From NCBI RefSeq assembly GCF_036711975.1, contig NC_091967.1, positions 27,776,001 through 27,840,000 of the forward strand: DNA of 64,000 nucleotides, given 5' to 3'. The position numbers and the translations under genes are program-made. Shown here piece after piece: positions 11,422-37,567 of this stretch (position 1 is the first letter of the stretch; each line of letters begins with the position of its first letter). Source of the DNA: Onthophagus taurus. Taxonomy: Eukaryota > Arthropoda > Insecta > Coleoptera > Scarabaeidae. The notes under the pieces were generated by a model. The model did no database searches, was not told the origin of the DNA, and saw nothing but the letters and a program-made list of their open reading frames with translations.

Positions 11422-13262
11422 ATGTTGACATTAACAACGTCATATTTTCTAATTTACGCCGTGTTATTGCAATTGATTCCTGTAAAATCAATTGAATTAG
11501 TGATTTACCACACAAGTAATATTCACGGTTATTTTGACGAAACGTACAGTTCAATAGATGAAAAACCAGTTGGTGGATTTGCTAGAATTGCATACGTATT
11601 GAATAAGGCTAAAGAAAATTATCGCAAAGGTAAAGGACCACCTGTTCTTTACTTTGATTGTGGAGACGTTTATACTGGTAGTGCATGGTTTACAATTCAC
11701 AAAGACAAAATCGCCACGGCGTTTATGAATGCTATAAAACCGGATGCTGTGGTGTGTTTTTCCTTGCTCCGTTTAATCCAAATTGCACAATATTTGTTTT
11801 AGTGTTTGGGTAATGCGGAATTTTCGTATGGATTAGATGGGTTAATGCCATATATCTCGAATGTCACCTTTCCCGTGGTGGTGTCAAACCTAGGTTTTAC
11901 GAGAGAACCCAAACTTGAAAAATTAATAAAACGGAAACATATAATTAAAATTGAAAAGACAATTATCGGAATTTTAGGATATATGAGGAATCGCAGAGAT
12001 TCTTTCGGTAATTTAGCCCCTACTGTGGATATTTTGGAGGAAGTTGAAATTATAAATAGTCTTTCCGAATCTCTTCGAAAGGTGGATGGAGTTCATATAG
12101 TTATTGTATTGAGTCATGGTAGCTCAGCATCAGATATGATGCTGAGTAGGTTAGTGAGATACGTCGATATTATTATCGGCGGAGATTCTCAAATCTTTTT
12201 GTGGAATGGTGTACCGCCGGATAATGAAAAACCAACCGGTGTTTATCCCACCCTTGTTCAACGTTCCGATGGGGCTAAACTTGCAATTGCTTATGTACGT
12301 GGTAGAACAAAGTATCTTGGAAAATTACACGTATCGTTTGATGAAAGACGTTTTAGAGGGCAGTATAGTGGTCAACCTATTTTGTTGGACGAGTCCATTG
12401 GGCAGGATACATTTTTCTTAGAACTACTTGAGACATTTCGTCCTGCAATAACTGAGGCTAATGAAACATTTCTTGGTAAGTGCAGGGTTGTATTGAATGC
12501 GTCGTCTTGTAAATACGATGAGTGTAACTTTGGAAACTTGATAACGGATTCGTTTGTTCGATTTAACGCTAAACGGTATTTGTCTAAGTATGAAATTGAT
12601 TTTATCTATAAATAATTTTTGTAACAAATATCTCCTATTCAAGATATGAACAAGTTTCAAACGACATGTGGTCGGATGCTGCAATAGCCATAATTAACAG
12701 TGGAGCAATCCGTGAAAACATCATTCCCGGAAAAAGGAAGAACAATGTCTATAAACTCGACATATTAGAAGCACTCCCTGTCGACGATTTACTTTATTTA
12801 ATTAAAATATCCGGAGCTGATTTAATGTTAGCTTTAGAGCACGGCGCTAAAGGTAACGAATATAAGTTAAGAAATGAGTTTTTACACGTATCTGGCTTGA
12901 AAATTGTTTATGATTTCGCTAAACCAGAAGGTGAACGAATAAAATCCGTTTTTGTGAAATGCGCATATTGCAGAAACCCTAAATATGAGCCTATCCATAA
13001 TAGCAGTTTCTATGGAATTGTAACTACCGAGTATTTAGTGAACAACGGGGATGGTCATCTATCGTTAAGCAGCGGCAAATCTAATTTTTTGTTTACTACA
13101 AATATGTCTAACATCATCGAGTGCGTAATGGAGTATTTTGATACATTTCAAGTTCTTGCCCCTGAAATTGAGGAACGAATTATAATTGAAAATCCATTTT
13201 CTGTTGCATCACAGCTTAATTTTTTAGATTTATTTTTGATTCTTATATTTCTTATTCTTTAA
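11422..13262 (+). CDS. 5'-nucleotidase/apyrase-family protein, probably catalytically dead
   Basis: Three exons, 11,422-11,751, 11,803-12,587 and 12,644-13,262, join in frame to 577 codons. Introns of 51 and 56 nt have GT/AG ends, phases 0 and 2 (a donor at 12,576 is an alternative for the second). A hydrophobic signal peptide (residues 1-23) is followed by the metallophosphatase domain, a 5'-nucleotidase C-terminal domain (NSGAIR, FLHVSGLKIVYD, YLVNNGDGH) and a hydrophobic tail (FLDLFLILIFLIL) like a GPI-anchor signal, implying an ectoprotein. Family members hydrolyse extracellular nucleotides with two metals. Here the HTNDxH motif is HTSNIH, GNHEFD is GNAEFS and the GGHxH motif is GGDSQ, so metal ligands and the catalytic His are replaced. 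GDVYTG and LSHG remain. The frame is otherwise intact, which suggests a retained pseudoenzyme rather than a fresh pseudogene. Confidence 0.85.
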
Positions 13263-19265: not shown

Positions 19266-19912
19266 ATGTCAGGCTCCTCTATCTCTCCTGTTGATTCATT
19301 TGACGAAAACAACGCAGATTTAGGGCAAAATTTAGAGTTAGATTTAGATTTATTTGAAAGATTTAATAAATTAAAGTTAGAAACTCAAAACGAGACACAA
19401 TTAGTAGAATTAGGAGAAAATTTGCAAATGGCACCTCCAGTATTAGATATAAAAAATCTTAGTATAATTCCTAATTTTGACGGGAATCCGAATAAATTGC
19501 ATAGATTTATCGAGGCTTCAGAAGCAATATTAACATATTATTTTGATACAGCAAATGCAAGTAATTTTCAGAATGTTCTATTGCTTAATGGCATATTAAA
19601 TAAATTAGAAGGTATTAAAAGCAAAAAAATATTAAAAGCACCCTTATTCAAAATTTTGGAGACCAACGCGATGAAAATTGTTTAAATTAAGGTTTGGTTA
19701 ATTTGAGACAAAAACCTAACGAAACATCTTCTCAATTTCACGAACGAATAACTCATTTACTTAATACGATCTGTAATTACATTGATTTAAAATGTGACGC
19801 TGAACAAAGAGACAGTAAACGCGATTTTTTCAAAAAGCGAGCATTAAAAACATTTTTAGCAGATCTACGAGAACCTCTAGGGTCTATTATAAGAGCCATG
19901 AGACTAGATAAC
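19266..19912 (+). pseudogene. gag: Errantivirus 1 gag, 5' part (split by Polinton P1)
   Basis: From ATG at 19,266 the frame encodes an acidic N-terminus (SISPVDSFDENN) and a capsid-like segment IPNFDGNPNKLHRFIEASEA, matching IPNFDGN...LFIKACEEF in the gag at 49,484-50,494. A frameshift/stop occurs near 19,685; the second frame continues with FHERITHLLNTICNYIDLKC. The reading frame then meets Polinton P1 at its GATAAC target duplication. Gag packages the retroelement RNA. Broken by frameshift and insertion. Confidence 0.8.
19907..19912. repeat. Left target-site duplication GATAAC
   Basis: GATAAC immediately before the Polinton end AGTAGTGT; the same hexamer follows the right end at 31,850-31,855. 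Six-base duplications are the Polinton norm. Confidence 0.95.
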
Positions 19913-20013
19913 AGTAGTGTAAAAAGGCCGATTCTGGACAGGAAGTGATCCTGATCCTCCCTCGCGCATGCGCAGTGAAGCGGATATGACGTCAGCGCAT
20001 GCGCAGTACGTGT

Positions 20014-20295
20014 ATGTAATGTTGGTTGCCTACCTCGTGGGGCGCCACCTAGCGGTAGATAGCGGAACTAACCACCTAGCGGTGGGTGGTGAAACTAACG
20101 CCATGTTGGTTGGTTGCCTACTTCATGGGACGCCACCTAGCGGTGGGTGGTGGAACTAAGGTGGGTGGTGGAACTAACGCCATGTTGGTTGCCTACTTCA
20201 TGGGACGCCACCTAGCGGTGGGTGGTGGAACTAACGCCATGTTGGTTGCCTACTTCATGGGACGCCACCTAGCGGTGGATGGTGGAACTTAGCGG
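20014..20295. repeat. Minisatellite in left TIR
   Basis: Units of about 57-74 bp built on ttcatgggacgccacctagc and ggtgggtggtggaacta; three full units here against six in the right repeat. The open frame of repeated MLVAYFMGRHLAVGGGT is a by-product of the repeat. Confidence 0.85.
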
Positions 20296-21370
20296 TTTAG
20301 AGTTCCGTAGGGTGCGGTAAGGGGGTTGGGTGATAGATGGCGCGCGTAAATTTAAAATTGGTGTCACCTAGCGGTGGAACGTTGAGTGATAAATGGCGCG
20401 CGTCTGGGCGTTCTAAATCAAAATCCCATAAGATTTAACATAGGGGAGTCCGAAATCACATTTTATCCCTACCACTACCTCCTTTTGAGGTTCTGACCAC
20501 GCCCACATTTTAAAGTCCCAAGAACCCTCTTTTTCCGGAAAATTTGAATGCTGCTATCTAACACCACGATGACGTCATCGTCGATACATGAGGACACAAA
20601 GCTTGGTGTTGCCTGATGGGCGGTAGACGAACGAAATATACATAATACTTACTTGTTATAGGAATTGAACTGATAGCTGCAAGGAGAAATCTAGAAACTT
20701 TAAAGTCAATAAACCACCGAAACCTTTCCAGTTTATTGCAGTTGAACAGAACAAAAAATAAAAAAACAAAAATAAATATTAATTTATTAATTAAAACATA
20801 AATTTAATAATACAATTAGATTAATAAACCTCCGCGATACGTTTTGGTAAAAATACGAATAAACCATCCTACAAATCAACAACTGATCGCCATGTAGATG
20901 ATGTAATCCGCTTCACAGACGTAAATCACATATAATTTATTCACTTCTAATTCAGATATGTTCTTCTTCGGGGCAAATTGATACTGCTCTATAACTGATT
21001 TAAACGTGACATACTAGCTTGAGTTGCTTTATAACGTGAGCGAGCGGTGTGAGCAGTAGTAGAAGGTAACAACTGACTTCTATATGAAAATTTTAACCGT
21101 TTATACCATCGGGAACAACCTTGAAAAATGTTAGAATGTGTGTTGCACAACAACAACAATAACTTAAACGTTTATACGTAATTAGACGAATATAAAGTTG
21201 TTATACAATGCAAATAATATATTATGCATTTTATTTTCTCGAATCTTCGCCGCACCTTGATTTATTGACAGTGTATGCAAATAGAAATGCAAATGAAAAT
21301 AGAAATTTAAAATGCAATAAAATAAAGTTGACTATAATACAATGTATGACGTGTTTTAACTGGAATAAAT

Positions 21371-21565
21371 ATGAAATCGGTTCGATTTAAGGAAGAGATT
21401 GAGATTTATGAAGTAGAGTGTGATGATGTACATAAAAGAGCAAGAAGTGGACGGGGATGGTTAGAGGCGGTAATTGATAGACAACGATTTCAAAGACGTA
21501 TTAAAGAAATTGAACGAATTGTTGATAAAATATTGCGTGAAAAATTGTTAAAAATGAATGAATAA
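21371..21565 (+). CDS. PPP1R15/GADD34-like PP1-docking protein (left TIR copy)
   Basis: 64 residues. Residues 2-6 are KSVRF, a canonical RVxF docking motif for protein phosphatase 1. After an acidic stretch (EEIEIYEVECDD) comes RARSGRGW (23-30) and then IDRQRFQRRIKEIE (35-48). A PP1-docking motif followed at this distance by a Trp and a basic helix with DRxRFxxRI is the conserved core of PPP1R15 proteins and of viral counterparts known from large DNA viruses, which bring PP1 to phosphorylated eIF2alpha and restore translation. I infer the same role: countering host translation arrest. The frame is near-minimal for that core, sits at the inner end of the TIR, and is followed by AATAAA-type sequence. 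Alternative: chance resemblance in a small basic protein. The TIR location gives every P1 two copies. Confidence 0.6.
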   Translation: MKSVRFKEEIEIYEVECDDVHKRARSGRGWLEAVIDRQRFQRRIKEIERIVDKILREKLLKMNE

Positions 21566-21759
21566 ATAAAACTTAATAAAATATATATTGTTTTAATTAC
21601 TTTAGTTTTAGTATACAGTTGTATAAAACCTATTGATGCACAAAAGAAACGTTTAAACAAAACATATAATTTGAAGGTGGAGGAGATAAGTATACTACTA
21701 AAATAAGGGCCAGATAACATATTAAAAAAGTTGTTTTATTTAAAAAAATGTAATTACTA

Positions 21760-22683
21760 CTACACAATATCTGATTTCTTAATCCAACTTCTTTCATCTA
21801 TTCCAAACCACTTGACGTACATTCTGTTTCCTTTCCGTTTTAGAATCTTTTCAATCAACTGTATGTCAGGATAATGAGTCCGTTGTAATTCTTCAGTATA
21901 GAAAGCTCCTTTAATGTCATCACCTTTCAAATCTTGTAGTAAATACGTCACTGGATTACTATATTGAATCTTAACAATTTTAAAAACTTCATTGCTCCAG
22001 TTAGGAGTATACCCTTTGGTGAACACACCACGATGTTTAGATATTCTTACAAAGTCATTCAAATGAAATTTTGTGTGTAATGTTTGACTTTGATAATGTG
22101 TTTTTCTATTATAAACAGTACGCAATAGCTTTTCCTCATCCGCCTCTATTGGTTTCATACCTGTAGTGGAATGCTTGCGGGTATTATATATTAATAAAAT
22201 TTGCGGTAATAAATTTAACCATTTAAAAGATCCCTGAACACTAAATTCTTTCCACATTAAACCTTTTAAAGTTCTATTTAAACGTTCAACGATAGATGCT
22301 TTTAACGAGCTAAACGTAGAGTAATGATTAATTTTTAATTTACTCATAAGTGACATAAAATCTTTATTATAAAACTCTTTTCCTTGATCGGTTTGAAGGT
22401 TTTTTGGTACGTTTGCATCCTTTAAAATACTTTTCATTGCTTTAGTAACATCTTTACCTGATTTAGTTTTTACCGGAACAGCCCATGCATATTTGCTAAA
22501 GACATCAATTACAACGAGTATATAACGATAACCACTATTTTGTCGTGCATAAGGTATCATCTCTACTAAATCAGCCTGGTATAAATCATTTATCCCTTTA
22601 GTAAGTACATGTCTTCTTTTAAAATGTATTCGAGCAGGTTTATGAAGTTCTTCAGCTAATTTTCTTTTAATATCAGAGGACAT
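21760..22683 (-). CDS. Polinton integrase (DDE, with chromodomain-like tail)
   Basis: 307 residues, retroviral-type (rve) integrase. Putative catalytic acids: D38 (YQADLVEM), D99 (LQTDQGKEF) and E133 (ASIVERLNRTLK). The last 40 residues (QLIEKILKRKGN, YVKWFG) resemble a chromodomain, as in integrases of C. elegans F54H12.3 type. It joins the linear element ends to target DNA with a 6-bp stagger, consistent with GATAAC. The gene is the last on the minus strand; its start overlaps the upstream gene by 28 bp, indicating compact viral-style packing. Intact. Confidence 0.93.
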   Translation of the reverse strand: MSSDIKRKLAEELHKPARIHFKRRHVLTKGINDLYQADLVEMIPYARQNSGYRYILVVIDVFSKYAWAVPVKTKSGKDVTKAMKSILKDANVPKNLQTDQGKEFYNKDFMSLMSKLKINHYSTFSSLKASIVERLNRTLKGLMWKEFSVQGSFKWLNLLPQILLIYNTRKHSTTGMKPIEADEEKLLRTVYNRKTHYQSQTLHTKFHLNDFVRISKHRGVFTKGYTPNWSNEVFKIVKIQYSNPVTYLLQDLKGDDIKGAFYTEELQRTHYPDIQLIEKILKRKGNRMYVKWFGIDERSWIKKSDIV

Positions 22684-23060
22684 GTTAGTACGATTTCTAC
22701 AAACAGTGTATTAATCGTCGCAGTAGGAGATGGAATGAATTTTAATCTGTCACCTTTCTTCAATTTGATACCCTTCCCATTTGAGCTATCATAAATCCTA
22801 TTGTTTACTATAAGAGTGGTGTCCGATGGCACAATGGTGATAGAGTAAATTTCTCCTGATTCAATAGGAAAAATATAATATCTGTTGAAATTACTCAGCG
22901 CATAACTATGTCCAGCTTTCGCACCAGTCAAAGTAATATTCAAATAAGAATAATATTTATGTTCTATTGAGGAGGAGGAAGAAGAAGAAGAAGAAATATG
23001 ATGTCCGAACTTGTGGATAGTCATAACTAAAATGATATAATGTATTGTAGGTTTATACAA
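22656..23060 (-). CDS. Unrecognised Polinton protein, 134 aa, Ser tract
   Basis: The start may be residue 1 or the Met at residue 13 (MTIHKFGH). A run of nine Ser precedes a region that looks beta-rich (SYLNITLTGAKAGHSYAL, IFPIESGEIYSITIVPSD, LFVEIVLTC). No family is recognised. Its place between integrase and a scaffold-like gene, and its probable beta content, would suit a minor virion or spike component; this is a guess. It overlaps the next gene upstream by 8 bp and the integrase by 28 bp. The Ser run is encoded by a simple repeat (minus strand TCN), so its length is likely variable. Confidence 0.6.
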   Translation of the reverse strand: MYKPTIHYIILVMTIHKFGHHISSSSSSSSSIEHKYYSYLNITLTGAKAGHSYALSNFNRYYIFPIESGEIYSITIVPSDTTLIVNNRIYDSSNGKGIKLKKGDRLKFIPSPTATINTLFVEIVLTCPLILKEN

Positions 23061-24168
23061 TTATATGAGCTTCTCGTAACTCTTCTATAATACTGTTAAT
23101 TTCATTACCATGTGACGTATTACCGGCAAGCTGAGAGGCTATTAAAAGTTTTAATCTATCTACTAATTCATTAGGATCATCCCAATAAATAAAATTTGAC
23201 CGTTGATTATTGTACTGCTGCTGCATGAGACCTTCACCAGTTCTCATACGAACAGGAACGCTTTTTACTCTAGTCCGTCGTACAACTCCTTCCGTTGTAT
23301 TTAAAACAGGTGCAATTATTTGACGATACTTGTCCGACTTGTCACCCATAATTTGTTTGCTTTTATCTTGATTTTTGTTTAATGCTGCTGTTGTTTTAAG
23401 TATTTCAACGTAATTCTTTTGATCATCACTGGTATATTGTTCTGGTTCCCTCTTGAAGATTAGCTCATACAGACCTTTCGTACCCTTATAAGTTTTATTT
23501 GCAATGGTTATATCATTCGTTTTACTACTAAAGAATATTTCACTATTTCCAATGGTATATTTATCAGTTAAAATATCAACATGAACTCCCTTGTTGCTGG
23601 AATCGAATTCATTGCTATCATCTCTTACATAGCCCTCAATGTAAGATCTTGTTAGAGGAGCAAATTGTTCCAAGTATAAGAAAAATGATTCTTCAGGAAT
23701 ATTCATAGTTTCTGGTAATGGAGATACATCTGCTGCTGTCGCTGCTGCTGCTGCAGGTGGTGATGTTTGCGTTGGTTGCGGTGGTGGTGATGGAGATGTT
23801 GCAAAAACATCTTCATCATCATCGCTTAATATTGATATTGTTGGTGATTGAGGCGCTTGTTGTTGTCGATGAAGTTCTGGTAGACGTGATGCTTGCACTG
23901 CTTCTGATACTCTTCTTTTCTTTGTAGGTATTACTGTTTTAAATTCTTCTTCTTTAACTTCCTCCGATTTAAGCTCCTCCTCCTCCTTCTTAACTTTAAT
24001 AGGATGTTTAATTGTGGAAATTATTTTTTTTAAAGGGGTTGTTACTGCTTTATATTGCTGTTGAAGCAAATGTTCGGATTTATGTTTCCTTGCTTTTAAT
24101 GTATCCAATTTCTTTTTCACATTTGCTCTTGTTTTAATAAGCTTTCGTGTTAATTGTTTTGAGTCCAT
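23053..24168 (-). CDS. Unrecognised Polinton protein, 371 aa
   Basis: Residues 1-80 are basic and helical (KKKLDTLKARKHKSEHLLQQ), with an acidic Lys/Glu patch (KVKKEEEELKSEEVKEEEF). Residues 110-150 are disordered, with SDDDED and Pro/Ala/Thr runs. The C-terminal half is ordered and ends with IYWDDPNELVDRLKLLIASQ and a further helix, which I associate from memory with proteins repeatedly encoded in insect Polintons. Function unknown; the charged disordered N-terminus would suit a DNA-binding core or scaffold role. Intact, in tight linkage with its downstream neighbours. An unusual palindromic repeat lies just upstream (24,240-24,382) and may form its promoter. Confidence 0.75.
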   Translation of the reverse strand: MDSKQLTRKLIKTRANVKKKLDTLKARKHKSEHLLQQQYKAVTTPLKKIISTIKHPIKVKKEEEELKSEEVKEEEFKTVIPTKKRRVSEAVQASRLPELHRQQQAPQSPTISILSDDDEDVFATSPSPPPQPTQTSPPAAAAATAADVSPLPETMNIPEESFFLYLEQFAPLTRSYIEGYVRDDSNEFDSSNKGVHVDILTDKYTIGNSEIFFSSKTNDITIANKTYKGTKGLYELIFKREPEQYTSDDQKNYVEILKTTAALNKNQDKSKQIMGDKSDKYRQIIAPVLNTTEGVVRRTRVKSVPVRMRTGEGLMQQQYNNQRSNFIYWDDPNELVDRLKLLIASQLAGNTSHGNEINSIIEELREAHIIV

Positions 24169-24239
24169 GTTTTCTGTACAATGAATGAACGGTTACTGAC
24201 TAATGCATGTGCTTACTGTAGAGTTTTATTGAAACTATT

Positions 24240-24382
24240 CAGGCCGGTTTTAACCGATCCGTTTTATCCGATCGGTTTTAACCGATCTGTTTTATCCGAC
24301 CGGTTTTAACCGATCAGTTTTATCCGACTAACCGCATTTATCGGTTGTAACACCGATACTTTATCGGTTGTAACACCGATAC
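24240..24382. repeat. AACCGATC palindromic repeat cluster
   Basis: Three near-repeats of about 31 bp (GGTTTTAACCGATC then GTTTTATCCGA), followed by two copies of TATCGGTTGTAACACCGATAC. Many units are partly self-complementary (ATCGG/CCGAT). The cluster fills the gap upstream of the 371-residue gene and overlaps the last codons of the phospholipase gene. The same motifs occur in block P2 at about 40,610-40,955, 41,145-41,325 and 43,690-43,930. Confidence 0.75.
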
Positions 24383-24732
24383 TTTTTCGGATTCTTCAAA
24401 CCGAAACCTAACTTTCGTTTTACTTTCATCGCATTAGTAACAAACCATGCGTTAGCTTTTTCACCAATCGATGAATCTTTCGCCAATACTCTTTTCCATG
24501 CTTCTTCAGCTAATACTTTATCTGCTTTATGTCGATTGTGTAAATCTGTGTATTGTGTATAGGCTAAATCGTGACGTTTACATGCTCTATCAAGGTCATT
24601 AATACCAGGATCTCCACGTGCTAAGCGTTTCATAAGATTTGTCCCGGGTCCACAGAACTGATAGCCGGGTAAATGCAGCTCTCCACCTGTTCGTATCACT
24701 AACATGACTGATATAGAAACATACACAATCAC
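24361..24732 (-). CDS. Parvovirus-type phospholipase A2 domain protein
   Basis: 123 residues. The calcium-loop motif YQFCGPG is at residues 24-30 and the catalytic HD in KRHDLAY at 54-55, matching the small phospholipase domain of parvovirus VP1 rather than secreted PLA2 (no disulphide pattern). In particles this activity opens endosomal membranes. The tail is basic (KVKRKLGFGLKNPKKYR), as in virion core proteins. The start overlaps the ATPase stop by 4 bp (ATGA), so the pair is probably co-transcribed. Intact. Block P2 has lost it. Confidence 0.85.
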   Translation of the reverse strand: MIVYVSISVMLVIRTGGELHLPGYQFCGPGTNLMKRLARGDPGINDLDRACKRHDLAYTQYTDLHNRHKADKVLAEEAWKRVLAKDSSIGEKANAWFVTNAMKVKRKLGFGLKNPKKYRCYNR

Positions 24733-25424
24733 AGTTTTATATAGTAATGAAACCCATTACGATATCTACCATTGTTCATATCGTCCTCCTTACTGATTAC
24801 AAAAAATCCAAATCTATCTTTCCAACACATTGAACACATTTTCTTAAAGACATTGAATTTCATATCGGTTGTTACATGATCATTATAAATATGTTTTAAA
24901 TTTAGATCATCTTGTTTGAAAAGTATTAAAAAGTTTGCATTATCACGTATTAAATGCTTTGGAATATGTGTGTAACTCTGACATAAATAAAAACTATCTA
25001 TTGCCTTATGTCGTCCCATACAAAAATAATCACGAATAATTGATTGTTTATCGCATGCTACATCATCAAATATAAAAACCGAATCTTCATTCGCTTTAGA
25101 AGGATGCATTATGTCATCACTACTGCTATACTCATAATATCCTAAACCTTTTATAGGCTGCAGCAATTTTCTCAAATATTCATATTTGTTTTGATACAAT
25201 GACTTTGAATACACATACACATTTTTAAATGATAGTCCATTAGGATCCTGTAATAAGCTAATTATCAGATTTGTTTTACCAGAGTTAGAAGGTCCGGATA
25301 TAATGCAACGTAGATTATTTGGAAATAAATAACTATGCTTTCTGTTTTGAGGTGATTGATTATTATTAAATTGCATTGTTACATCATCAACACTTAATGT
25401 GTAAGGTTGTTTTATCACTTTCAT
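24729..25424 (-). CDS. Polinton packaging ATPase (FtsK/HerA, A32-like)
   Basis: 231 residues with Walker A GPSNSGKT (44-51) and Walker B VFIFDD (116-121), then FCMGRHKAIDSFYLCQSY, the sensor-like region of A32-type ATPases. Such enzymes pump genome DNA into capsids. It begins the minus-strand operon-like cluster; its start codon lies in the first of two tandem copies of a 128-bp sequence that also forms the intergenic promoter. Length normal for Polintons. Intact. Confidence 0.92.
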   Translation of the reverse strand: MKVIKQPYTLSVDDVTMQFNNNQSPQNRKHSYLFPNNLRCIISGPSNSGKTNLIISLLQDPNGLSFKNVYVYSKSLYQNKYEYLRKLLQPIKGLGYYEYSSSDDIMHPSKANEDSVFIFDDVACDKQSIIRDYFCMGRHKAIDSFYLCQSYTHIPKHLIRDNANFLILFKQDDLNLKHIYNDHVTTDMKFNVFKKMCSMCWKDRFGFFVISKEDDMNNGRYRNGFHYYIKL

Positions 25425-25637
25425 GTTTATTGTATAACTAACTATTATATAAGTTTGATTTTGAATATATAATGTTCATTTGTCTGTTGACCATTGAAGC
25501 GATTATCAATATCATCAATATTTAATGTGTAAGGTTGTTTTATCACTTTCATGTTTATGGTATAACTGACTCCTTTATAAGACTGAATTTAAACATATAA
25601 TATTCATTTGTCTGTTGACCATTGAAGTGATTGGACC
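25380..25637. promoter_or_regulatory. Divergent promoter region with 128-bp tandem duplication
   Basis: aatgtgtaaggttgttttat at 25,396 recurs at 25,524, and ttcatttgtctgttgacc at 25,472 recurs at 25,603. The duplicated unit includes the ATPase start codon and its first codons, so a second, decapitated ATPase start lies at 25,549-25,551. TATA-like tatataag/ttataag and catataatat motifs occur in both copies. The region separates the two divergent gene clusters. Confidence 0.7.
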
Positions 25638-26075
25638 ATGAAGAAAGGAGCAAGTGGAAAAGCGATTTCTTTTAATAAAGCCGTTAAAAATGCTAAAATA
25701 AAATTAAAAGAGTCAAGCACTAATGATTTCAAATCTGCTGCAAAGTTAGCTTTACGTGCCGTAAAAGGTATTGTCAAAAAGAAACCTCGTTCTAGAGTTA
25801 TTACAATTCCAAAAAGCGGTGGTATACTTCCGCTCATTCCAATTTTTGCTGGTTTAAGTGCATTAGGAGCTCTAGCAGGTGGCACTGCTTCCGTTATAAG
25901 TGCTGTCAATAAAACGAAGCAAGCACAAGCGGCACTCAAGGAAAGTCAAAGACATAATCAAACTATGGAATCAATAGCTTTAGGTAAAGGTCTGTATTTA
26001 AAACCATATAAAAAAGGATTAGGTGTTTTTTTAAAGACACGCCAAGAAAAACCATACAACAGCAGAAAGCGCTAA
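25638..26075 (+). CDS. Adenovirus core-protein-X/pVI-like minor virion protein
   Basis: 145 residues. The N-terminus is strongly basic (KKKPRSRVITIPKS), followed by GGILPLIPIFAGLSALGALA, a Gly/Ala-rich hydrophobic segment, then a short amphipathic helix and a basic tail (KPYKKGLGVFLKTR). The basic-then-hydrophobic layout is that of adenovirus pX/pVI-type minor proteins and their adintovirus/Polinton counterparts, which contact the genome and membranes. First gene of the plus cluster, 14 bp before the protease. A Gly-Gly within the hydrophobic start could be a protease site. Assignment is by layout, not strict identity. Confidence 0.65.
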   Translation: MKKGASGKAISFNKAVKNAKIKLKESSTNDFKSAAKLALRAVKGIVKKKPRSRVITIPKSGGILPLIPIFAGLSALGALAGGTASVISAVNKTKQAQAALKESQRHNQTMESIALGKGLYLKPYKKGLGVFLKTRQEKPYNSRKR

Positions 26076-26089
26076 CAAACGTTGACTTG

Positions 26090-26425
26090 ATGCGTTATGT
26101 GAAAATATTAGGGATACCAGAGTTTAGAGGGATATTCATGCAAGATAAATTACCTGTGCGTATTAATAATAATGAAAGAGGTATTATTAACTTGGATAGT
26201 GTGAAAGGACCTGGTACTCATTGGACAGCCTATATTAAAAAGGGAAATATAATTACTTATTTCGATAGTTTTGGTAATTTAAAACCAAGTAAAGAAATTG
26301 TCAATTATTTCAAGAGTGCAGGAAATAATGTAATTATTAAATATAATCACCATCAATATCAAACCTATAACACAAGTAATTGTGGTCATTTATGTTTAAA
26401 TTTCTTATCATCAGACGCATTATAG
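26090..26425 (+). CDS. Adenain-type cysteine protease (Ulp1 fold)
   Basis: 111 residues from the ATG at 26,090. His44 in GTHWTAY, Asp59 in TYFDSFG, Gln89/91 in HQYQTYN and Cys98 in SNCGHLC give the His-Asp-Gln-Cys order of the adenovirus maturation protease family. It cleaves precursor virion proteins during assembly. It is short even for Polintons, lacking most of the region after the Cys helix, but all catalytic positions are present. Sixteen bases separate it from the penton-like gene. Confidence 0.88.
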   Translation: MRYVKILGIPEFRGIFMQDKLPVRINNNERGIINLDSVKGPGTHWTAYIKKGNIITYFDSFGNLKPSKEIVNYFKSAGNNVIIKYNHHQYQTYNTSNCGHLCLNFLSSDAL

Positions 26426-26441
26426 TTTCAACAATCGAAGG

Positions 26442-27149
26442 ATGTGGACGTTTGATTTAGTAGGAAAAACGTCTGTTCTAACAGCAAATTATCACCCTGC
26501 AATAGAACTGAATCCTAATTATCAATATGAACTGGCACTTGTAAGCTTTGATGGATACAACTCAATTCCAAATATTGACGAAACAAATAATTGCTTAAAA
26601 ATTGATAATGAATTGATAGCACTACCAACAGGATCTTATGAATTAACACACATTTCGAATGCCATTAATAAACAACTTAAAGAAAAGAATATTAAAGGTG
26701 TGAACTTTAGCCTACAAGCAAATGAGGATACTCTACAAGCAGTGATCACATGTAACAAAACTATTGATTTTAATGTAAACAACTCCATCTCAACAATATT
26801 AGGATTTAATAAATCAGATGTACTGGATCCAATAAAATCCCCGCATAGAGCTCGCAATATTGTAGATATATTTAAAGTAAATTCTATACAAGTACTATGT
26901 AGCATAACACATGGAGCTTATCACAACGACATACCTGCGCACACTATCTACTCATTTTTCCCTACAGTACCTAAAGATTATAAAATATCAGAAACTCCCC
27001 ACAATTTAATATATATGCCTCTGAATACACAAATAATTAATAATATTACCCTTAAAATAGTTGATCAAAACGGATTGTTGTTCAATTTCAGAGGAGAAGT
27101 CATCAAGATAAGACTACATTTAAAGCTCTCTAGTAATAATGGTTCTTAA
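26442..27149 (+). CDS. Penton-like minor capsid protein
   Basis: 235 residues, predicted mostly beta. The opening WTFDLVGKTSVLTANYHPAI and the segment ELALVSFDGYNSIPNI are typical of the small jelly-roll proteins encoded next to the protease in insect Polintons, which form the capsid vertices. The ending GEVIKIRLHLKL is a terminal strand. Its last 11 bases overlap the next small frame. A degraded copy of its middle third lies at 28,489-28,637. Intact. Confidence 0.75.
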   Translation: MWTFDLVGKTSVLTANYHPAIELNPNYQYELALVSFDGYNSIPNIDETNNCLKIDNELIALPTGSYELTHISNAINKQLKEKNIKGVNFSLQANEDTLQAVITCNKTIDFNVNNSISTILGFNKSDVLDPIKSPHRARNIVDIFKVNSIQVLCSITHGAYHNDIPAHTIYSFFPTVPKDYKISETPHNLIYMPLNTQIINNITLKIVDQNGLLFNFRGEVIKIRLHLKLSSNNGS

Positions 27150-27273
27150 GGTAAAAGGTAATATAAACCCACAAAATCAAACCAATACTTTTAGTTCTCT
27201 TCACACTGTGAAACAGTTAACACCTCAAAACAAACAATTTCTTGAATCATTAGGTTTACAATTAATAAAATAA
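27139..27273 (+). CDS. Small Polinton protein, 44 aa
   Basis: ATG at 27,139 overlaps the penton-like stop and the frame ends eight bases before the capsid start. It reads MVLKVKGNIN..., ending LTPQNKQFLESLGLQLIK. The (N/E)xxFLxSLGL ending looks like a conserved peptide rather than noise, and the tight fit between two genes in a compact cluster supports it. Function unknown; such small proteins are often capsid cement or assembly factors. Confidence 0.6.
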   Translation: MVLKVKGNINPQNQTNTFSSLHTVKQLTPQNKQFLESLGLQLIK

Positions 27274-27280
27274 TAACAAT

Positions 27281-28483
27281 ATGAGTATCTTAAACGTCTC
27301 TGATAAAGTACAATTTGATAATTCACTCGTACGGATTCAGTATCATAATCATTTACCATACTCATCAAATTCTTTTAACAATAGCGATGAAATTCGTATT
27401 GCAATTCAACAACAGGACGTTTACACGTTACCAAGTCAATCTTTTATTTACGTACAAGGGAAACTATTGAAAGATGACGGAACCGTTGATAAAGATTCAA
27501 AATTGTCAGCAAATCCGATCGCTCATATGTTTAGTGAAGTACGATTTGAATGTGGAGGGAACGTAATTGACAGAGTAAGAAATCCAGGAATAGCTAGCAC
27601 ATTAAAAAATCTTTGCTCATTAACAAGATCGGAATACTATCATGCCTCTAACGCAGGTTTCGAATATCCAAATGTTAAAGTAAATGAAAATACAGGAGAT
27701 TTTAATTTTTGTGTTCCCTTGAAATATTTTCTTGGGTTCGCAGAAGATTATAATAAAATTTTGATAAATCTCCGTCAAGAATTAGTTTTAGTACGCAGTA
27801 ATTCAGACAAGAATGTTATCGAAAGTCTTTTACCTAATGTGGCGATTACTATTAATAAAATAGTATGGAAAGTTCCTCATGTTTCTGTAGCCGATGTTGA
27901 ACGTTTAAAACTTTTAGAGTACATTGAACAAGGAATTGAATTGGACATGGGATTTAGATCATTTGATTTACATGAATACCCATCATTACCAAAAAATAGA
28001 CAACACACATGGACAATTAAAACATCTACTCAATTAGAAAAGCCCAGATACTTTATATTAGGGTTTCAAATCAATAGAAAAGATAATCCGTTACGTTCTG
28101 CATCACAATTTGACCACTGTAATTTAACAGATATGAAAGTGTTTTTAAATAGTGAGAAATATCCCTATGAAGCTTTAAATTTAAATTTTAAGACAGGTCA
28201 AATTGCAGTTTTATATGAAATGTATTGTAATTTCGCAAAGACCTATTACGATCGAGAACTTGCAGAACCAATGTTTAACAGAGATACATTTTTAGCACAT
28301 ACACCGATTATTGTAATTGATTGTTCACGGCAAAATGATATTTTAAATGTTGGAACCGTTGATATTCGCATTGAATTTGAAACGAGTGAAGAGATACCTA
28401 ATGCTACTTCCCTCTACTGTTTAATCTTACACGATCGTGTTTTCAAATATGTTCCTTTAACTGGTATGATTAATCAAATATAG
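27281..28483 (+). CDS. Major capsid protein, lineage 1 (F54H12.2-like)
   Basis: 400 residues. Its sequence pattern (VQGKL near the start, VRNPGIASTLKNL, KYFLGFAEDY, FQINRKDNPL, HCNLTDMKVFLNSEKYPYEA, FNRDTFLAHTPIIVIDC) parallels the capsid gene of block P2 at 37,568-38,800, and the set matches what is widely annotated as F54H12.2-like protein and interpreted as the double jelly-roll capsid of Polintons. It forms the hexons of the icosahedral particle. The two in-window versions are clearly homologous but far apart, so two Polinton lineages are present. Intact. Confidence 0.85.
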   Translation: MSILNVSDKVQFDNSLVRIQYHNHLPYSSNSFNNSDEIRIAIQQQDVYTLPSQSFIYVQGKLLKDDGTVDKDSKLSANPIAHMFSEVRFECGGNVIDRVRNPGIASTLKNLCSLTRSEYYHASNAGFEYPNVKVNENTGDFNFCVPLKYFLGFAEDYNKILINLRQELVLVRSNSDKNVIESLLPNVAITINKIVWKVPHVSVADVERLKLLEYIEQGIELDMGFRSFDLHEYPSLPKNRQHTWTIKTSTQLEKPRYFILGFQINRKDNPLRSASQFDHCNLTDMKVFLNSEKYPYEALNLNFKTGQIAVLYEMYCNFAKTYYDRELAEPMFNRDTFLAHTPIIVIDCSRQNDILNVGTVDIRIEFETSEEIPNATSLYCLILHDRVFKYVPLTGMINQI

Positions 28484-28776
28484 ATCAGTTTGTAAACAAC
28501 TCTATCTCATCGACATAACGTTTTAGTAAATTAGATGTACTGGATCCAATAAAATTCCCACACAGCGCTCGAAATATTGTAGATATATTTAAAGTAACTT
28601 ATATGCAAGTATAATGTAACATAACACATACCTGCATAATTTTACTGAAACATAAATAACTTTGGAATTCGAAATACTCAGAAGTTATTTATAATCATTA
28701 CGTACATTCTTTAATAATTTTACAAAAACCTTTGAGTGGGGAGGTATCTATAGTTATAAATTACATTTATTACAAT
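28484..28776 (+). pseudogene. Recombination scar: penton fragment plus foreign capsid tail
   Basis: 28,489-28,637 is a decayed copy of 26,773-26,930 within the penton-like gene (shared blocks AGATGTACTGGATCCAATAA and AATATTGTAGATATATTTAA). 28,726-28,767 encodes KPLSGEVSIVIN, the C-terminus of the lineage 2 capsid (KPLSGEVSVIIN at 37,571-37,606), not of the adjacent lineage 1 capsid, which ends VPLTGMINQI. The next gene is also the one that follows the lineage 2 capsid in P2. Confidence 0.8.
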
Positions 28777-29286
28777 ATGAAGTTCAGATGTGCGGTTGTA
28801 GACGTTCAAGGGTTTTACGTCAACTGTAAATTCGAAGTTAAAGAATTTACTCTTCTGGATATTACCGCCACCGGCTACATTATACATTTACACCTAAAGC
28901 CGAGCGTACCATTCCAACGATTAAACGTTGAAGATCAGAGGTCAGTAAGATATTTAGAACGCAACCATCATAGGTTGATATATAACGATGGGTGGATAAA
29001 TCAATCGGAAGGTCTAAATGTAATTGATGGTTTTATTTCCTCCTACGATCAAATATTTGTTAAGGGAAATCAAAAGAAGCAGTTTTTGGAAACACGTAAC
29101 CATAATAATAATTCAATAATAACAGATATTGCGTTAGAATTTGCGGAAGAGGATGAAACTAAATTAAATTCAACCTCCAATCAATGTTGGTTTCACGTCG
29201 GCTGTTGTCCAGCGGTATGTTCACAGAACAATGTTTTAATTTTAAAAAAATTTTTATGTAAACAAAATAAAGTTACTTGTATTTAA
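28777..29286 (+). CDS. Conserved Polinton protein, possible RNase H-fold nuclease
   Basis: 169 residues from ATG at 28,777, chosen because the homologue at 37,038-37,535 starts at the same MKF. The start VVDVQGFYVN with a beta-strand-like run (IIHLHLKPSVPF), SVRYLERNHH, a run ending FVKGNQKKQFLE and a C-terminal CWFH...CSQNNVLILKKFL recall DEDD-type exonuclease layout, with Asp in the first strand and a conserved His/Cys end. The second acid of a D-x-E motif is Gln here, so activity is doubtful. Function is inferred weakly. Present in both P1 and P2, downstream of a capsid gene. Confidence 0.65.
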   Translation: MKFRCAVVDVQGFYVNCKFEVKEFTLLDITATGYIIHLHLKPSVPFQRLNVEDQRSVRYLERNHHRLIYNDGWINQSEGLNVIDGFISSYDQIFVKGNQKKQFLETRNHNNNSIITDIALEFAEEDETKLNSTSNQCWFHVGCCPAVCSQNNVLILKKFLCKQNKVTCI

Positions 29287-29946
29287 GTTGCCTGAATTAT
29301 TATTAGAAATATTCCTATTGTATTATTAAATTTATGTTTTAATCAATAAATTAATATTTATTTTTGTTAAAAAATATGCATTTTAATACTATCAAAATAA
29401 TTGTATCTTTATTCTCTTTTACCACCATCACCAGATGGCGTCACATGAATTTTAAATTTACGCGCGCCATCTATCGCCCATCAGGCAACACCTAGCGCGC
29501 GTCATTTATCGCTCAACGCTTTGTGTCCGCATGTATCGACGATGACGTCATCGTGATAAGGCCCGTCGATCTAGATAGCCTCATTCAAATTTCCCGCCAA
29601 AAAGAGGGTTCTTGGAGAATGCTGCGCTCCGATTGGTTGAATTTAAAATGTGGGCGTGGCCAGAAGGAGGTAGTGGTGGGGATAAAATTTGATTTCGGAC
29701 CCCCCTATATTAAATCTTATGGGAGTTTGGTCCAGAACGCCTATAGCTATACGCACGCTATCTATCGCTCATCAGATGAATTTAAAATGTGTACGTGGTC
29801 AGAAGGAGGTAGTGGTGGGGATAAAAAGTACTTTTGGACCCCCCTACGTTAAATCTTATGGGATTTTGATTTAGAACGCCCATAGATATATGCGCGTCAT
29901 TTATCGCTCAATAAAAATTTTAAAGCTACATGTATTTTAATACTAC
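29287..29946. repeat. Relic of a second, diverged TIR end
   Basis: 29,430-29,900 contains gcgcgccatctatcgccca, atgtatcgacgatgacgtca, aaaatgtgggcgtgg and aatcttatgggattttgatt, all found in P1's outer inverted repeat (30,960-31,250), but in diverged and partly doubled form (the ggaggtagtggtggggata block occurs twice, at 29,664 and 29,803). It lies just inside the intact right TIR, so an older end has been capped by a newer one. Confidence 0.75.
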
Positions 29947-30008
29947 TTTATACAACTGTATACTAAAACTAAAGTAATTAAAACAATATATATTTTATTA
30001 AGTTTTAT

Positions 30009-30203
30009 TTATTCATTCATTTTTAACAATTTTTCACGCAATATTTTATCAACAATTCGTTCAATTTCTTTAATACGTCTTTGAAATCGTTGTCTATCAA
30101 TTACCGCCTCTAACCATTCCCGTCCACTTCTTGCTCTTTTATGTACATCATCACACTCTACTTCATAAATCTCAATCTCTTCCTTAAATCGAACCGATTT
30201 CAT
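30009..30203 (-). CDS. PPP1R15/GADD34-like PP1-docking protein (right TIR copy)
   Basis: Same 64-residue protein as at 21,371-21,565 with one visible residue change: SGREW here, SGRGW on the left. KSVRF docking motif and DRQRFQRRI helix are intact. The Glu version is nearer the acidic residue expected around the Trp in this protein core. Identical copies in both repeats are expected from TIR conversion during replication; the single difference shows the copies are beginning to diverge. Confidence 0.6.
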   Translation of the reverse strand: MKSVRFKEEIEIYEVECDDVHKRARSGREWLEAVIDRQRFQRRIKEIERIVDKILREKLLKMNE

Positions 30204-31282
30204 ATTTATTCCAGTTAAAACACGTCATACATTGTATTATAGTCAACTTTATTTTATTGCATTTTAAATTTCTATTTTCATTTGCATTTCTATTTGCATA
30301 CACTGTCAATAAATCAAGGTGCGGCGAAGATTCGAGAAAATAAAATGCATAATATATTATTTGCATTGTATAACAACTTTATATTCGTCTAATTACGTAT
30401 AAACGTTTAAGTTATTGTTGTTGTTGTGCAACACACATTCTAACATTTTTCAAGGTTGTTCCCGATGGTATAAACGGTTAAAATTTTCATATAGAAGTCA
30501 GTTGTTACCTTCTACTACTGCTCACACCGCTCGCTCACGTTATAAAGCAACTCAAGCTAGTATGTCACGTTTAAATCAGTTATAGAGCAGTATCAATTTG
30601 CCCCGAAGAAGAACATATCTGAATTAGAACTAAATAAATTATATGTGATTTACGTCTGTGAAGCGGATTACATCATCTACATGGCGATCAGTTGTTGATT
30701 TGTAGGATGGTTTATTCGTATTTTTACCAAAACGTATCGCGGAGGTTTATTAATCTAATTGTATTATTAAATTTATGTTTTAATTAATAAATTAATATTT
30801 ATTTTTGCTTTTTATTTTTTGTTCTGTTCAACTGCAATAAACTGGAAAGGTTTCGGTGGTTTATTGACTTTAAAGTTTCTAGATTTCTCCTTGCAGCTAT
30901 CAGTTCAATTCCTATAACAAGTAAGTATTATGTATATTTCGTTCGTCTACCGCCCATCAGGCAACACCAAGCTTTGTGTCCTCATGTATCGACGATGACG
31001 TCATCGTGGCGTTAGATAGCAGCATTCAAATTTTCCGGAAAAAGAGGGTTCTTGGGACTTTAAAATGTGGGCGTGGTCAGAACCTCAAAAGGAGGTAGTG
31101 GTAGGGATAAAATGTGATTTCGGACTCCCCTATGTTAAATCTTATGGGATTTTGATTTAGAACGCCCAGACGCGCGCCATTTATCACTCAACGTTCCACC
31201 GCTAGGTGACACCAATTTTAAATTTACGCGCGCCATCTATCACCCAACCCCCTTACCGCGCCCTACGGAACTCTAAACCGCT

Positions 31283-31745
31283 AAGTTCCACCATCCACCG
31301 CTAGGTGGCGTCCCATGAAGTAGGCAACCAACATGACGTTAGTTCCACCACCCACCGCTACGTGGCGTCCCATGAAGTAGGCAACCAACATGGCGTTAGT
31401 TTCACCACCCACCTTAGTTCCACCACCCACCGCTAGGTGGCGTCCCATGAAGTAGGCAACCAACATGACGTTAGTTCCACCACCCACCGCTAGGTGGCGT
31501 CCCATGAAGTAGGCAACCAACATGGCGTTAGTTTCACCACCCACCTTAGTTCCACCACCCACCGCTAGGTGGCGTCCCATGAAGTAGGCAACCAACATGA
31601 CGTTAGTTCCACCACCCACCGCTAGGTGGCGTCCCATGAAGTAGGCAACCAACCAACATGGCGTTAGTTTCACCACCCACCGCTAGGTGGTTAGTTCCGC
31701 TATCTACCGCTAGGTGGCGCCCCACGAGGTAGGCAACCAACATTA
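31283..31745. repeat. Minisatellite in right TIR
   Basis: Six units of ggtggcgtcccatgaagtag with flanking caccacccaccgctaggtgg, against three in the left repeat. The added units account for nearly all of the 188-bp difference in TIR length. Confidence 0.85.
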
Positions 31746-31849
31746 CACGCACGTACTGCGCATGCGCTGATGTCATATCCGCTTCACTGCGCATGCGCGA
31801 GGGAGGATCAGGATCACTTCCTGTCCAGAATCGGCCTTTTTACACTACT

Positions 31850-31855
31850 GATAAC
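31850..31855. repeat. Right target-site duplication GATAAC
   Basis: Matches 19,907-19,912 exactly and directly follows ACACTACT, the P1 right end. Confidence 0.95.
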
Positions 31856-32491
31856 CTTGCACAAGCTTTACAGTATATCACTGAAGAAGACAACATTAGG
31901 TATTACCAAAGATCCCAAACGTTTACAGCTCCAATTGTCGCTAAAAAAACAAATACTCACATGTTTAACAATTCACCTAATGTTCTTTCTAACAATCAGC
32001 AATATAATCGTTCGCCAACAGGTTTTAACAATCAGAATAATTTTCATCAACACCAATTTAAACCACTACCTTATTTTTCAAATCAGATGACGAATCAATT
32101 TCCACGTGGCCCAATAAACATCCAAAAATATCCAAACCAACAACAGCAAAAAATCGTAACAAATTCACATGTGTTCGGAAAACCACAAAACGCCTGGAAA
32201 CCTAATCCAAACGCCCAGAGACCTTTGTCTAAACCAACACCTATGAGTAGAGTAAGTTCACGGCCCTTCCAAATGCATAATACAGAGCTTTTCGAGAACA
32301 CACCTTCTTGTTCCTACCCTGCTCAAGAGTTTAATCAGTTCGATCAAGATTTTGATAATTATTGTTGCCAAGAACAATACCCGTATTCTCAAGAAACAGT
32401 ACCTGAAGAGGAATATCACGATACCTCTGAAGAACGTATTGACGAGCAGACAAATTTTCATTCAGGCCCCGATCAAATCGGTCCGGGTTAG
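31850..32491 (+). pseudogene. gag: Errantivirus 1 gag, 3' part
   Basis: The frame resumes exactly at the duplication in the same phase as the left part and runs about 213 codons to a stop. It is rich in Asn, Gln and Pro (FNNSPNVLSNNQQYNRS), ends acidic (TVPEEEYHDTSEERIDE) and lacks a zinc knuckle, as does the gag at 49,484-50,494. The second half of gag binds RNA. The element was already frameshifted upstream; whether before or after P1 arrived is unknown. Confidence 0.8.
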
Positions 32492-36887: not shown

Positions 36888-37037
36888 ATTTCATCAAATT
36901 TAGTTGTAAACTGAATACATTAATTTTTTAATTATATGATATAACTCACACCCCCACCCTCTCCCAATAAATTTTACAACTATTATAATAATAAAACTAC
37001 AATCAATTTTTTATTTAAAAATTATTATATTTACAAC

Positions 37038-37535: not shown

Positions 37536-37567
37536 ATTGTAAACTAACATATGACCTCATGTGTAAT

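What the first reader, a model, noticed from the sequence alone, without database searches (positions are those of the whole stretch)
21371..21565. A Polinton carries a PPP1R15/GADD34-like PP1-docking protein in both inverted repeats
The 64-residue frame has KSVRF at its start (RVxF PP1 docking), an acidic spacer, a Trp at 30 and IDRQRFQRRIKEIE, the order of the PPP1R15 core that directs PP1 to eIF2alpha. Large DNA viruses are known to encode such proteins to undo translation arrest. I know of no report of one in a Polinton. If real, this element carries a tool against the integrated stress response, doubled by its place in the TIR.
Basis: partly seen in the sequence, partly recalled or inferred. 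Interest (0 to 1): 0.85.

Follow-up and report, generated by a model that had tools for sequence, protein, structure and literature searches.

The report
Transposon-virus gene resembling GADD34 protein
A virus-like mobile DNA element in an animal (probably insect) genome carries a small gene that closely matches the part of GADD34 and of a swine-fever-virus protein that restarts protein synthesis after stress, and related elements in the same genome carry their own versions of it.

Summary
A 64-codon ORF (21371-21565 +) and its near-identical copy (30009-30203 -) lie in the long terminal inverted repeats of an 11.9-kb Polinton-type element (19913-31849, 6-bp target duplication). The protein is a genuine homologue of the PPP1R15/GADD34 C-terminal core. 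A single-sequence PDB search gives ASFV DP71L at E=1.9e-6; a profile of this genome's two closest clades gives DP71L 8.2e-9 and PPP1R15B 1.7e-4. It fits the published eIF2alpha-binding motif exactly and keeps PPP1R15A residues shown by mutation to matter. Between the two clades the frame is under purifying selection (pS 0.68-0.71, pN 0.32-0.33). It is not isolated: four families of the gene were seen in Polintons of three capsid lineages of this genome, one over the Pfam cut-off and fused to a conserved Polinton protein. The window copy alone is below that cut-off. Doubling by the TIR is real here but not general (19 of 41 clade-1 matches form head-to-head pairs). The likely mechanism, recruiting host PP1 to dephosphorylate eIF2alpha, is inferred and not shown. 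The literature searches I could run listed no report of this in Polintons; two key papers were not held.

The parts
19907..19912 (.). target-site duplication gataac, left
   Evidence: read; same 6 bp at 31850-31855
19913..21627 (+). left terminal inverted repeat, holds the PPP1R15-like gene
   Evidence: inverted-repeat arms; terminus
21371..21565 (+). PPP1R15-core-like gene, left copy, 64 aa
21374..21388 (+). RVxF PP1-docking motif (KSVRF, residues 2-6)
   Evidence: aligned with DP71L and PPP1R15B
21443..21502 (+). eIF2alpha-binding motif RSGRGWLEAVIDRQRFQRRI (residues 25-44), exact fit to the published pattern quoted in PMC5346070
21760..22683 (-). integrase (rve)
   Evidence: Pfam rve 55 bits
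22656..23024 (-). 122-aa ORF, unknown
23053..24168 (-). 371-aa ORF, unknown
24361..24705 (-). phospholipase A2-like protein
   Evidence: Pfam Phospholip_A2_4 55.7 bits
24729..25424 (-). A32-like packaging ATPase
   Evidence: Pfam Pox_A32 35.7 bits
25638..26075 (+). 145-aa ORF, putative virion protein (name inferred)
   Evidence: homologue in L032
26090..26425 (+). putative cysteine protease
   Evidence: Peptidase_C48 16.8 bits, E=0.0061, below cut-off 20.7
26442..27149 (+). putative minor capsid (penton) protein, named by position only; no Pfam match
27281..28483 (+). major capsid protein, double jelly roll
   Evidence: Pfam DJR-like_dom 362 bits
28777..29286 (+). 169-aa conserved Polinton protein; its homologue in another family is fused behind a PPP1R15 core
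29947..31849 (-). right terminal inverted repeat
30009..30203 (-). PPP1R15-core-like gene, right copy (one residue different)
31850..31855 (.). target-site duplication gataac, right
   Evidence: read

Best explanation
The frame is a functional PPP1R15-core gene carried by a Polinton. Shown here: it is homologous to the GADD34/CReP/DP71L core, it keeps the PP1-docking and eIF2alpha-facing residues, it evolves under purifying selection, and relatives occur in other Polintons of the same genome. Inferred: when the element is expressed, the short protein docks host PP1 through V4 and F6, its C-terminal helix (W30, D36, R39, F40, R42, R43) brings in G-actin and the eIF2alpha N-terminal domain, and the complex removes the stress phosphate from eIF2alpha. 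That would keep translation of capsid and replication proteins going against the host's stress kinases; in insects these would be PERK and GCN2, since PKR is absent there (recalled).
For: PDB phmmer with one sequence: DP71L 1.9e-6; reversed control finds no PPP1R15. Profile A1 (12 sequences of this genome, two clades): DP71L 8.2e-9, PPP1R15B 1.7e-4; 5 of the 6 hits at E<=10 are this family. Profile A3 (four families plus a fifth subtype and 3 ENA proteins): the best 7 of 16 hits are this family, PPP1R15B 8.5e-13. Pfam PF10488 over its cut-off (26.1) in relatives: 1 of 4 clade-2 proteins scanned (L041, 26.3) and third-family L061 and L051 cores (30.7, 29.6). Human PPP1R15A W582, R591, F592, R594, R595 (mutants in passages of PMC8500838) correspond to W30, R39, F40, R42, R43, identical in 32 of 32 clade-1 rows; in 12 clade-2 rows W, R591, F592, R595 are kept in 12 and R594 in 11. 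pS 0.68-0.71 vs pN 0.32-0.33 between clades, 0 of 2000 bootstraps of one pair reversed; similar between other families. AlphaFold2: low confidence at residues 2-17, helix 29-63 with mean pLDDT 87-95 over residues 31-60. 29 of 30 clade-1 loci lie beside Polinton genes.
Against: No expression, binding or enzymatic data. The window's protein scores 15.6 bits, below Pfam's 26.1; PPP1R15B is only E 0.4 with the single sequence. One of DP71L's two important leucines (L57) is V51 in the window copy. One school holds that the C-terminal region binds PP1 and actin but that substrate recruitment needs the middle region of PPP1R15 (PMC8633803, passages), absent here; the core complex is about ten times slower on the eIF2 trimer than the extended one (PMC10998612, passage), though viral and invertebrate counterparts share just this core (same paper). 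Foldseek found no PDB match for the monomer model. 4 of the 41 clade-1 rows have stops inside, and 3 of 15 clade-2 copies are broken. The most numerous family (family 4) has KVRI in place of KVxF, so its PP1 docking is doubtful. A weak competing Pfam match, Hen1_L, appears at E 0.18 for the window protein and 0.007 for L042.
Confidence: 0.82

Rival explanations
1. It is a PP1-targeting protein descended from PPP1R15 but now sends PP1 to another substrate, for example a phosphorylated capsid, nuclear or antiviral protein.
For: RVxF is generic among PP1 partners; the spacer between RVxF and W is not conserved with PPP1R15; family 4 has lost the canonical RVxF phenylalanine.
Against: Across the families W30, R39, F40, R43 and L55 are invariant and D36 and I44 nearly so: the substrate- and actin-facing part is what is kept, not just the docking motif.
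Confidence: 0.1
2. Captured fragment of a host PPP1R15 gene that hitchhikes in the TIR without function.
For: Small, terminal, duplicated by TIR expansion; some copies are broken (L043-L048).
Against: Purifying selection between clades and between other families; in L018, L027 and L029 no piece of at least 150 bp on the terminal side aligns to the window's arm (blastn, E<=1e-10) while the block 21347-21633 round the ORF stays at 92-93%; the core recurs in other families.
Confidence: 0.04
3. Chance resemblance of a basic helix preceded by a VRF tripeptide.
For: Short protein; Pfam E only 0.013 for the window copy; a whole-genome PF10488 search did not list clade 1.
Against: PDB E-values, 0 motif hits in 24 Mb simulated DNA, reversed control, and a third-family query that reaches the window copy at E 0.036 and clade 2 at 0.0046 in the whole genome.
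Confidence: 0.01
4. It works against PP1, sequestering it or blocking the cell's own PPP1R15, and so prolongs translational arrest.
For: The authors of PMC5346070 (passage) saw more phospho-eIF2alpha with one DP71L mutant that may still bind PP1, and suggest sequestration.
Against: Here the substrate-contact residues are kept; the L61 equivalent L55 is invariant in A3.
Confidence: 0.03

Closest known systems
African swine fever virus DP71L (short form)
   Same: Size (64 vs about 71 aa), VRF docking motif, W, DRxRFQRRI; best single-sequence PDB match, E=1.9e-6; carried by a large DNA virus
   Different: Longer N-terminus, shorter spacer between RVxF and W, LSAVL instead of VDKIL; carried by a virion-forming virus, not by an integrated Polinton
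PPP1R15A/GADD34 and PPP1R15B/CReP C-terminal core (PF10488)
   Same: RVxF, eIF2alpha-binding motif, residues mapped by mutation; profile A1 E 1.7e-4 (R15B) and 0.16 (R15A), profile A3 8.5e-13 and 3.3e-12
   Different: Mammalian proteins exceed 600 aa with further N-terminal regions; here only the core
Herpes simplex virus ICP34.5 C-terminal domain
   Same: Viral PPP1R15 core with RVxF and eIF2alpha motif (from passages of PMC5346070 and PMC8633803)
   Different: Larger protein; not compared by sequence here
Polinton/Maverick elements
   Same: DJR capsid protein, rve integrase, A32-like ATPase, protease-like ORF, long TIRs, 6-bp target duplication
   Different: No PolB-like gene in this element; PPP1R15-core gene in the TIRs

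Membership tests
PPP1R15 core (GADD34/CReP/DP71L) | RVxF PP1-docking motif | tested here: met
   KSVRF; V and F in 32 of 32 clade-1 rows (30 genome places, two read twice), F in 12 of 12 clade-2 rows and V in 11
PPP1R15 core (GADD34/CReP/DP71L) | eIF2alpha-binding motif Rx[Gnl]x1-2Wxxx[Arlv]x[Dn][Rg]xRFxx[Rlvk][Ivc] | tested here: met
   RSGRGWLEAVIDRQRFQRRI; motif text from a PMC5346070 passage; scan
PPP1R15 core (GADD34/CReP/DP71L) | Residues whose mutation weakens human PPP1R15A: W582, R591, F592, R594, R595 | tested here: met
   W30, R39, F40, R42, R43; mutants in PMC8500838 passages; positions counted on the alignment with 7nzm, tallies
PPP1R15 core (GADD34/CReP/DP71L) | Pfam PF10488 curated cut-off 26.1 bits | tested here: inconclusive
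   Window copies 15.6 and 15.3 bits, not met. Relatives: L041 26.3 met, L031, L033, L042 not; L061 and L051 met, L060, L062, P0003 not
PPP1R15 core (GADD34/CReP/DP71L) | Statistically significant homology to solved members | tested here: met
PPP1R15 core (GADD34/CReP/DP71L) | Two leucines of the DP71L LSAVL motif | tested here: inconclusive
   L61 to L55 kept; L57 to V51 in the window, L in other copies
PPP1R15 core (GADD34/CReP/DP71L) | Binds PP1, with G-actin, and dephosphorylates eIF2alpha | not testable with these tools
   needs biochemistry
Polinton/Maverick | Double jelly-roll major capsid protein | tested here: met
   DJR-like_dom 362 bits
Polinton/Maverick | Retroviral-type integrase, A32-like ATPase | tested here: met
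   rve 55 bits, Pox_A32 35.7 bits
Polinton/Maverick | Adenovirus-type cysteine protease | tested here: inconclusive
   Peptidase_C48 16.8 bits, cut-off 20.7
Polinton/Maverick | Long TIRs and 6-bp target duplication | tested here: met
Polinton/Maverick | Protein-primed PolB | tested here: not met
   The longest ORF in 19913-31849 is the 400-aa capsid protein. In the clade-2 stretch opened for ORFs (L031) there are 914-aa and 311-aa ORFs with PolB-like motifs (recalled), without a Pfam DNA-polymerase match at E<=1. So the element is called Polinton-type

The most novel reading that the evidence does not exclude
Interference with the integrated stress response is a standing trait of insect Polintons. 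PPP1R15 cores were acquired or swapped repeatedly, occur in this one genome as stand-alone TIR genes, as single genes and as fusions to a conserved Polinton protein, and are kept by selection because these elements still go through, or recently went through, a virus-like productive phase in cells that sense them.
Probability: 0.6. Interest if true: 0.85.

Novelty: new variant of a known kind. Interest (0 to 1): 0.74.

Why it matters
Polintons have virion genes, but proof that they act as viruses in animals is scarce (recalled). A host-takeover gene aimed at translational arrest, kept under selection in several families, is what an infecting virus needs and a purely intragenomic transposon would seem not to need. 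It makes the viral lifestyle testable in insect cells, extends the PPP1R15 mimics beyond the herpesvirus and asfarvirus examples, and supplies very small natural variants of the core for structural work.

Tried and rejected
Chance similarity, a captured pseudogene and a broken frame were considered and rejected. The single-protein search of 5.8 billion proteins found nothing. The profile A1 found one protein, P0001, at a non-significant E of 2.0; a profile that includes P0001 then found it and two close relatives. These three 75-aa proteins come from ENA contigs of 7.8-24.4 kb of unknown context; their membership rests on the motifs and, for P0003, on PF10488 at E 0.00045, under the cut-off. 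Six scans of viral contigs found no confirmed relative, so I cannot show the gene in free viral contigs. The host's own PPP1R15 gene was not located in whole-genome searches with the window protein, PF10488 and a third-family core; the places opened were members of these families, decayed relatives, or stretches too short to place, and most of the 88 PF10488 matches were not opened. Host capture is therefore untested. The monomer model gave no Foldseek match. The 5.2 kb round a fifth subtype (L062) holds retroelement genes but no capsid gene. Papers that could say whether Polinton accessory genes of this kind are known (Koonin et al. 2024, Starrett et al. 2021) are not held, nor is Rojas et al. 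2015; its motif is taken from a passage of PMC5346070. How many Polinton capsid genes have a PPP1R15 core nearby could not be counted: the search did not complete.

Full report
Observation. The ORF is present as described: 21371-21565 (+), 64 codons, and 30009-30203 (-), one residue different. Both lie in inverted repeats; the arms 20754-21627 and 29947-30820 are 99% complementary. The element's ends are perfect 17-bp inverted termini at 19913 and 31849, found in the window only there, flanked by the direct 6-bp repeat gataac. Between them lie an rve integrase, a phospholipase A2-like protein, an A32-like ATPase, a weakly matched C48-like protease and a double-jelly-roll major capsid protein of 362 bits. 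It is therefore a Polinton-type element of 11,937 bp. Its longest ORF is the 400-aa capsid protein, so it has no PolB-sized frame.

Homology. The protein alone matches PF10488 (PP1c_bdg) at E=0.013, below the curated cut-off, over profile positions 170-215 of 230. A single-sequence search of the PDB chain sequences gives DP71L of African swine fever virus at 1.9e-6 and PPP1R15B at about 0.4. The reversed sequence gives no PPP1R15 chain. A profile of two clades of this genome (A1, 12 sequences) gives DP71L 8.2e-9, PPP1R15B 1.7e-4 and PPP1R15A 0.16, with 5 of 6 hits at E<=10 in this family. A profile of all families found (A3, 12 sequences, 3 of them ENA proteins) gives PPP1R15B 8.5e-13, PPP1R15A 3.3e-12 and DP71L 9.8e-11; the best 7 of 16 hits are this family.

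Functional residues. A passage of PMC5346070 quotes the eIF2alpha-binding motif of Rojas et al. 2015; the window protein fits it without a mismatch. In six frames of the window the motif occurs only in these two ORFs, and 0 times in 24 Mb of simulated DNA. Passages of PMC8500838 report that W582, R591, R594, F592 and R595 of human PPP1R15A matter for substrate or G-actin contact. Counted on the alignment they correspond to W30, R39, R42, F40 and R43 here. They are identical in all 32 clade-1 rows examined (30 genome places, two of them read twice). In 12 clade-2 rows there is one exception, R594 to K in one row. Of the two important DP71L leucines, L61 is kept as L55; L57 is V51 in the window and L in some other copies. 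AlphaFold2 gives low confidence at residues 2-17 and a confident helix 29-63 (a first run with closer relatives only was similar), which is what an extended docking segment plus a helical substrate segment would look like without partners. Foldseek found no PDB match.

Selection. The search of the window's own genome with the protein gave 59 matches. I count 41 as clade 1 (39 at 91-100% identity, 2 lower; 4 with stops inside), 15 as clade 2 (44-49%), and leave out 3 fragments of one broken place. Between clades pS is 0.68-0.71 and pN 0.32-0.33; 0 of 2000 codon bootstraps of one pair reverse this. Within clade 1 there are 16 synonymous and 20 nonsynonymous variants, ratio about 0.3 (including a few past the early stop of L030); within clade 2, 4 and 6, ratio about 0.32. 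Broken copies were not in these counts. The paired arms are probably not independent, so the between-clade figure is the stronger. The sense frame is open in one copy of each clade compared, while the other five frames have stops in both. In L018, L027 and L029 no piece of at least 150 bp on the terminal side aligns to the window's arm, yet the block 21347-21633 keeps 92-93%.

Spread. 29 of 30 clade-1 loci lie next to Polinton genes: 20 next to the integrase, 9 next to the 169-aa protein. 10 of 15 clade-2 stretches of 9.9 kb show the capsid gene or part of it. Most of their capsid pieces are 83-92% identical to the window's; the PPP1R15-like protein is 44-50% identical. An integrase of about 54% lies beside the gene in 2 of the 15 (L038, L039) and may belong to a neighbouring element. 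L031, opened for ORFs, has large ORFs with PolB-like motifs. PF10488 over the whole genome gave 88 matches, which did not include clade 1. A third family (L061) has a 409-aa capsid protein of 335.7 bits and a 222-aa ORF whose first 59 residues are a PPP1R15 core of 30.7 bits, over the cut-off, fused in frame to the 169-aa-type protein. A more distant subfamily repeats that fusion (L066, L067). A fourth family (L060) has capsid, minor-capsid-like, protease-like and phospholipase-like genes and a 74-aa core in which KVRI replaces KVxF; 58 matches, this one included, have the same score and span, and only this one was opened with its neighbours. A fifth subtype (L062) keeps KKVTF, with no capsid gene in 5.2 kb. 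The capsid proteins of the window type, the third and the fourth family are only 39-43% identical, while clade 1 and clade 2 share theirs at 88%: four families of the gene on three capsid lineages. Purifying selection also shows between the fourth family and the fifth subtype (pS 0.83, pN 0.29) and among the third family's subfamilies (0, 1 and 0 of 1000 bootstraps reversed); two close third-family copies show nothing either way (pS 0.027, pN 0.028). P0001-P0003, 75-aa proteins with the same motifs, come from ENA contigs.

Duplication by the TIR. 41 clade-1 matches make 10 head-to-head pair links 8.6-9.0 kb apart, involving 19 matches and 9 elements; two of the links share one partner because of a local tandem copy. 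22 are unpaired (counts are lower bounds, since only the best candidates are scored). No two clade-2 matches listed lie within 15 kb. So the doubling looks like a state of one subfamily, in which the repeat has come to include the gene.

Mechanism. The anatomy points to a minimal eIF2alpha holophosphatase targeting subunit like DP71L. Shown: homology, motif and residue conservation, selection, linkage to Polinton genes. Inferred: PP1 binding, G-actin use, eIF2alpha dephosphorylation, benefit to the element. Against: some authors place substrate recruitment in the middle region of cellular PPP1R15 (PMC8633803 passages), and the core complex acts about ten times more slowly on the eIF2 trimer than an extended one (PMC10998612 passage). 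For: the roughly 70-residue core is what viral and invertebrate proteins share and it acts efficiently on the eIF2alpha N-terminal domain with PP1 and G-actin in vitro (same paper); it is reported as sufficient in cells (PMC8500838 passage); conservation among the viral proteins is confined to it (PMC4394352 passage).

Novelty. Searches of the held library for Polinton or Maverick with PPP1R15, GADD34 or DP71L, Polinton with eIF2 or phosphatase 1, and adintovirus with related terms listed no paper whose title or start of abstract reports such a gene. Searches show only 40 of 706 and 15 of 1,566 papers; of the 6 distinct papers listed I looked at passages of one (PMC13390420), which is unrelated; two key Polinton papers are not held. 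'Unreported' is limited to that. Viral PPP1R15 mimics are a known kind; their presence in Polintons, in several families and as a fusion, is the new part.

Limits. Insect origin is an inference, helped by a Baculo_F-type envelope gene in a retroelement. The host PPP1R15 gene was not found, so the time and source of acquisition are open. The share of Polintons that carry the gene could not be counted (search did not complete).

Noticed in passing
window 36246-38800: A second Polinton-type lineage: 410-aa double-jelly-roll capsid protein (30% identical to the first) and a 170-aa protein 82% identical to the first element's 169-aa protein; none of three genome searches matched a PPP1R15 core there (capsid and protein comparisons).
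   Followed up: partly
L032, L031, L038 against window 19913-31849: Mosaic evolution: capsid, protease and minor capsid 85-92% identical between the two clades (L032), but PPP1R15-like protein only 44-50% and integrase about 54% (two loci), and large PolB-like ORFs seen in one clade only. The window type may depend on a helper for replication.
   Followed up: partly
L061:2788-3456, L066, L067: A PPP1R15 core fused in frame to the 169-aa-type Polinton protein, in two subfamilies about 51% identical over the core; an internal ATG at the junction would also allow separate products.
   Followed up: partly
window 19266-19685 and 31793-32491: The Polinton appears to sit inside an LTR-retrotransposon gag-like frame, which resumes beyond the 6-bp duplication (by reading only).
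   Followed up: no
L024 (C6:27857408 and 27857831): Two copies of the PPP1R15-like gene in tandem, 423 bp apart, in one arm.
   Followed up: no
L031:2533-3261: A 242-aa ORF without Pfam match beside the PPP1R15-like gene in clade-2 loci L031 and L033.
   Followed up: no
L060:2974-3198 and the equal-scoring places: The most numerous family has KVRI instead of KVxF in the copies opened; either docking is lost or another contact compensates.
   Followed up: no
L062:2205-2429 and L060:3443-3925: The fifth subtype's neighbour ORF reads like the ORF next to the fourth family's core, so L062 may be a Polinton remnant (by reading only).
   Followed up: no
window 11845-13262: 5'-nucleotidase-like gene pieces.
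   Followed up: no
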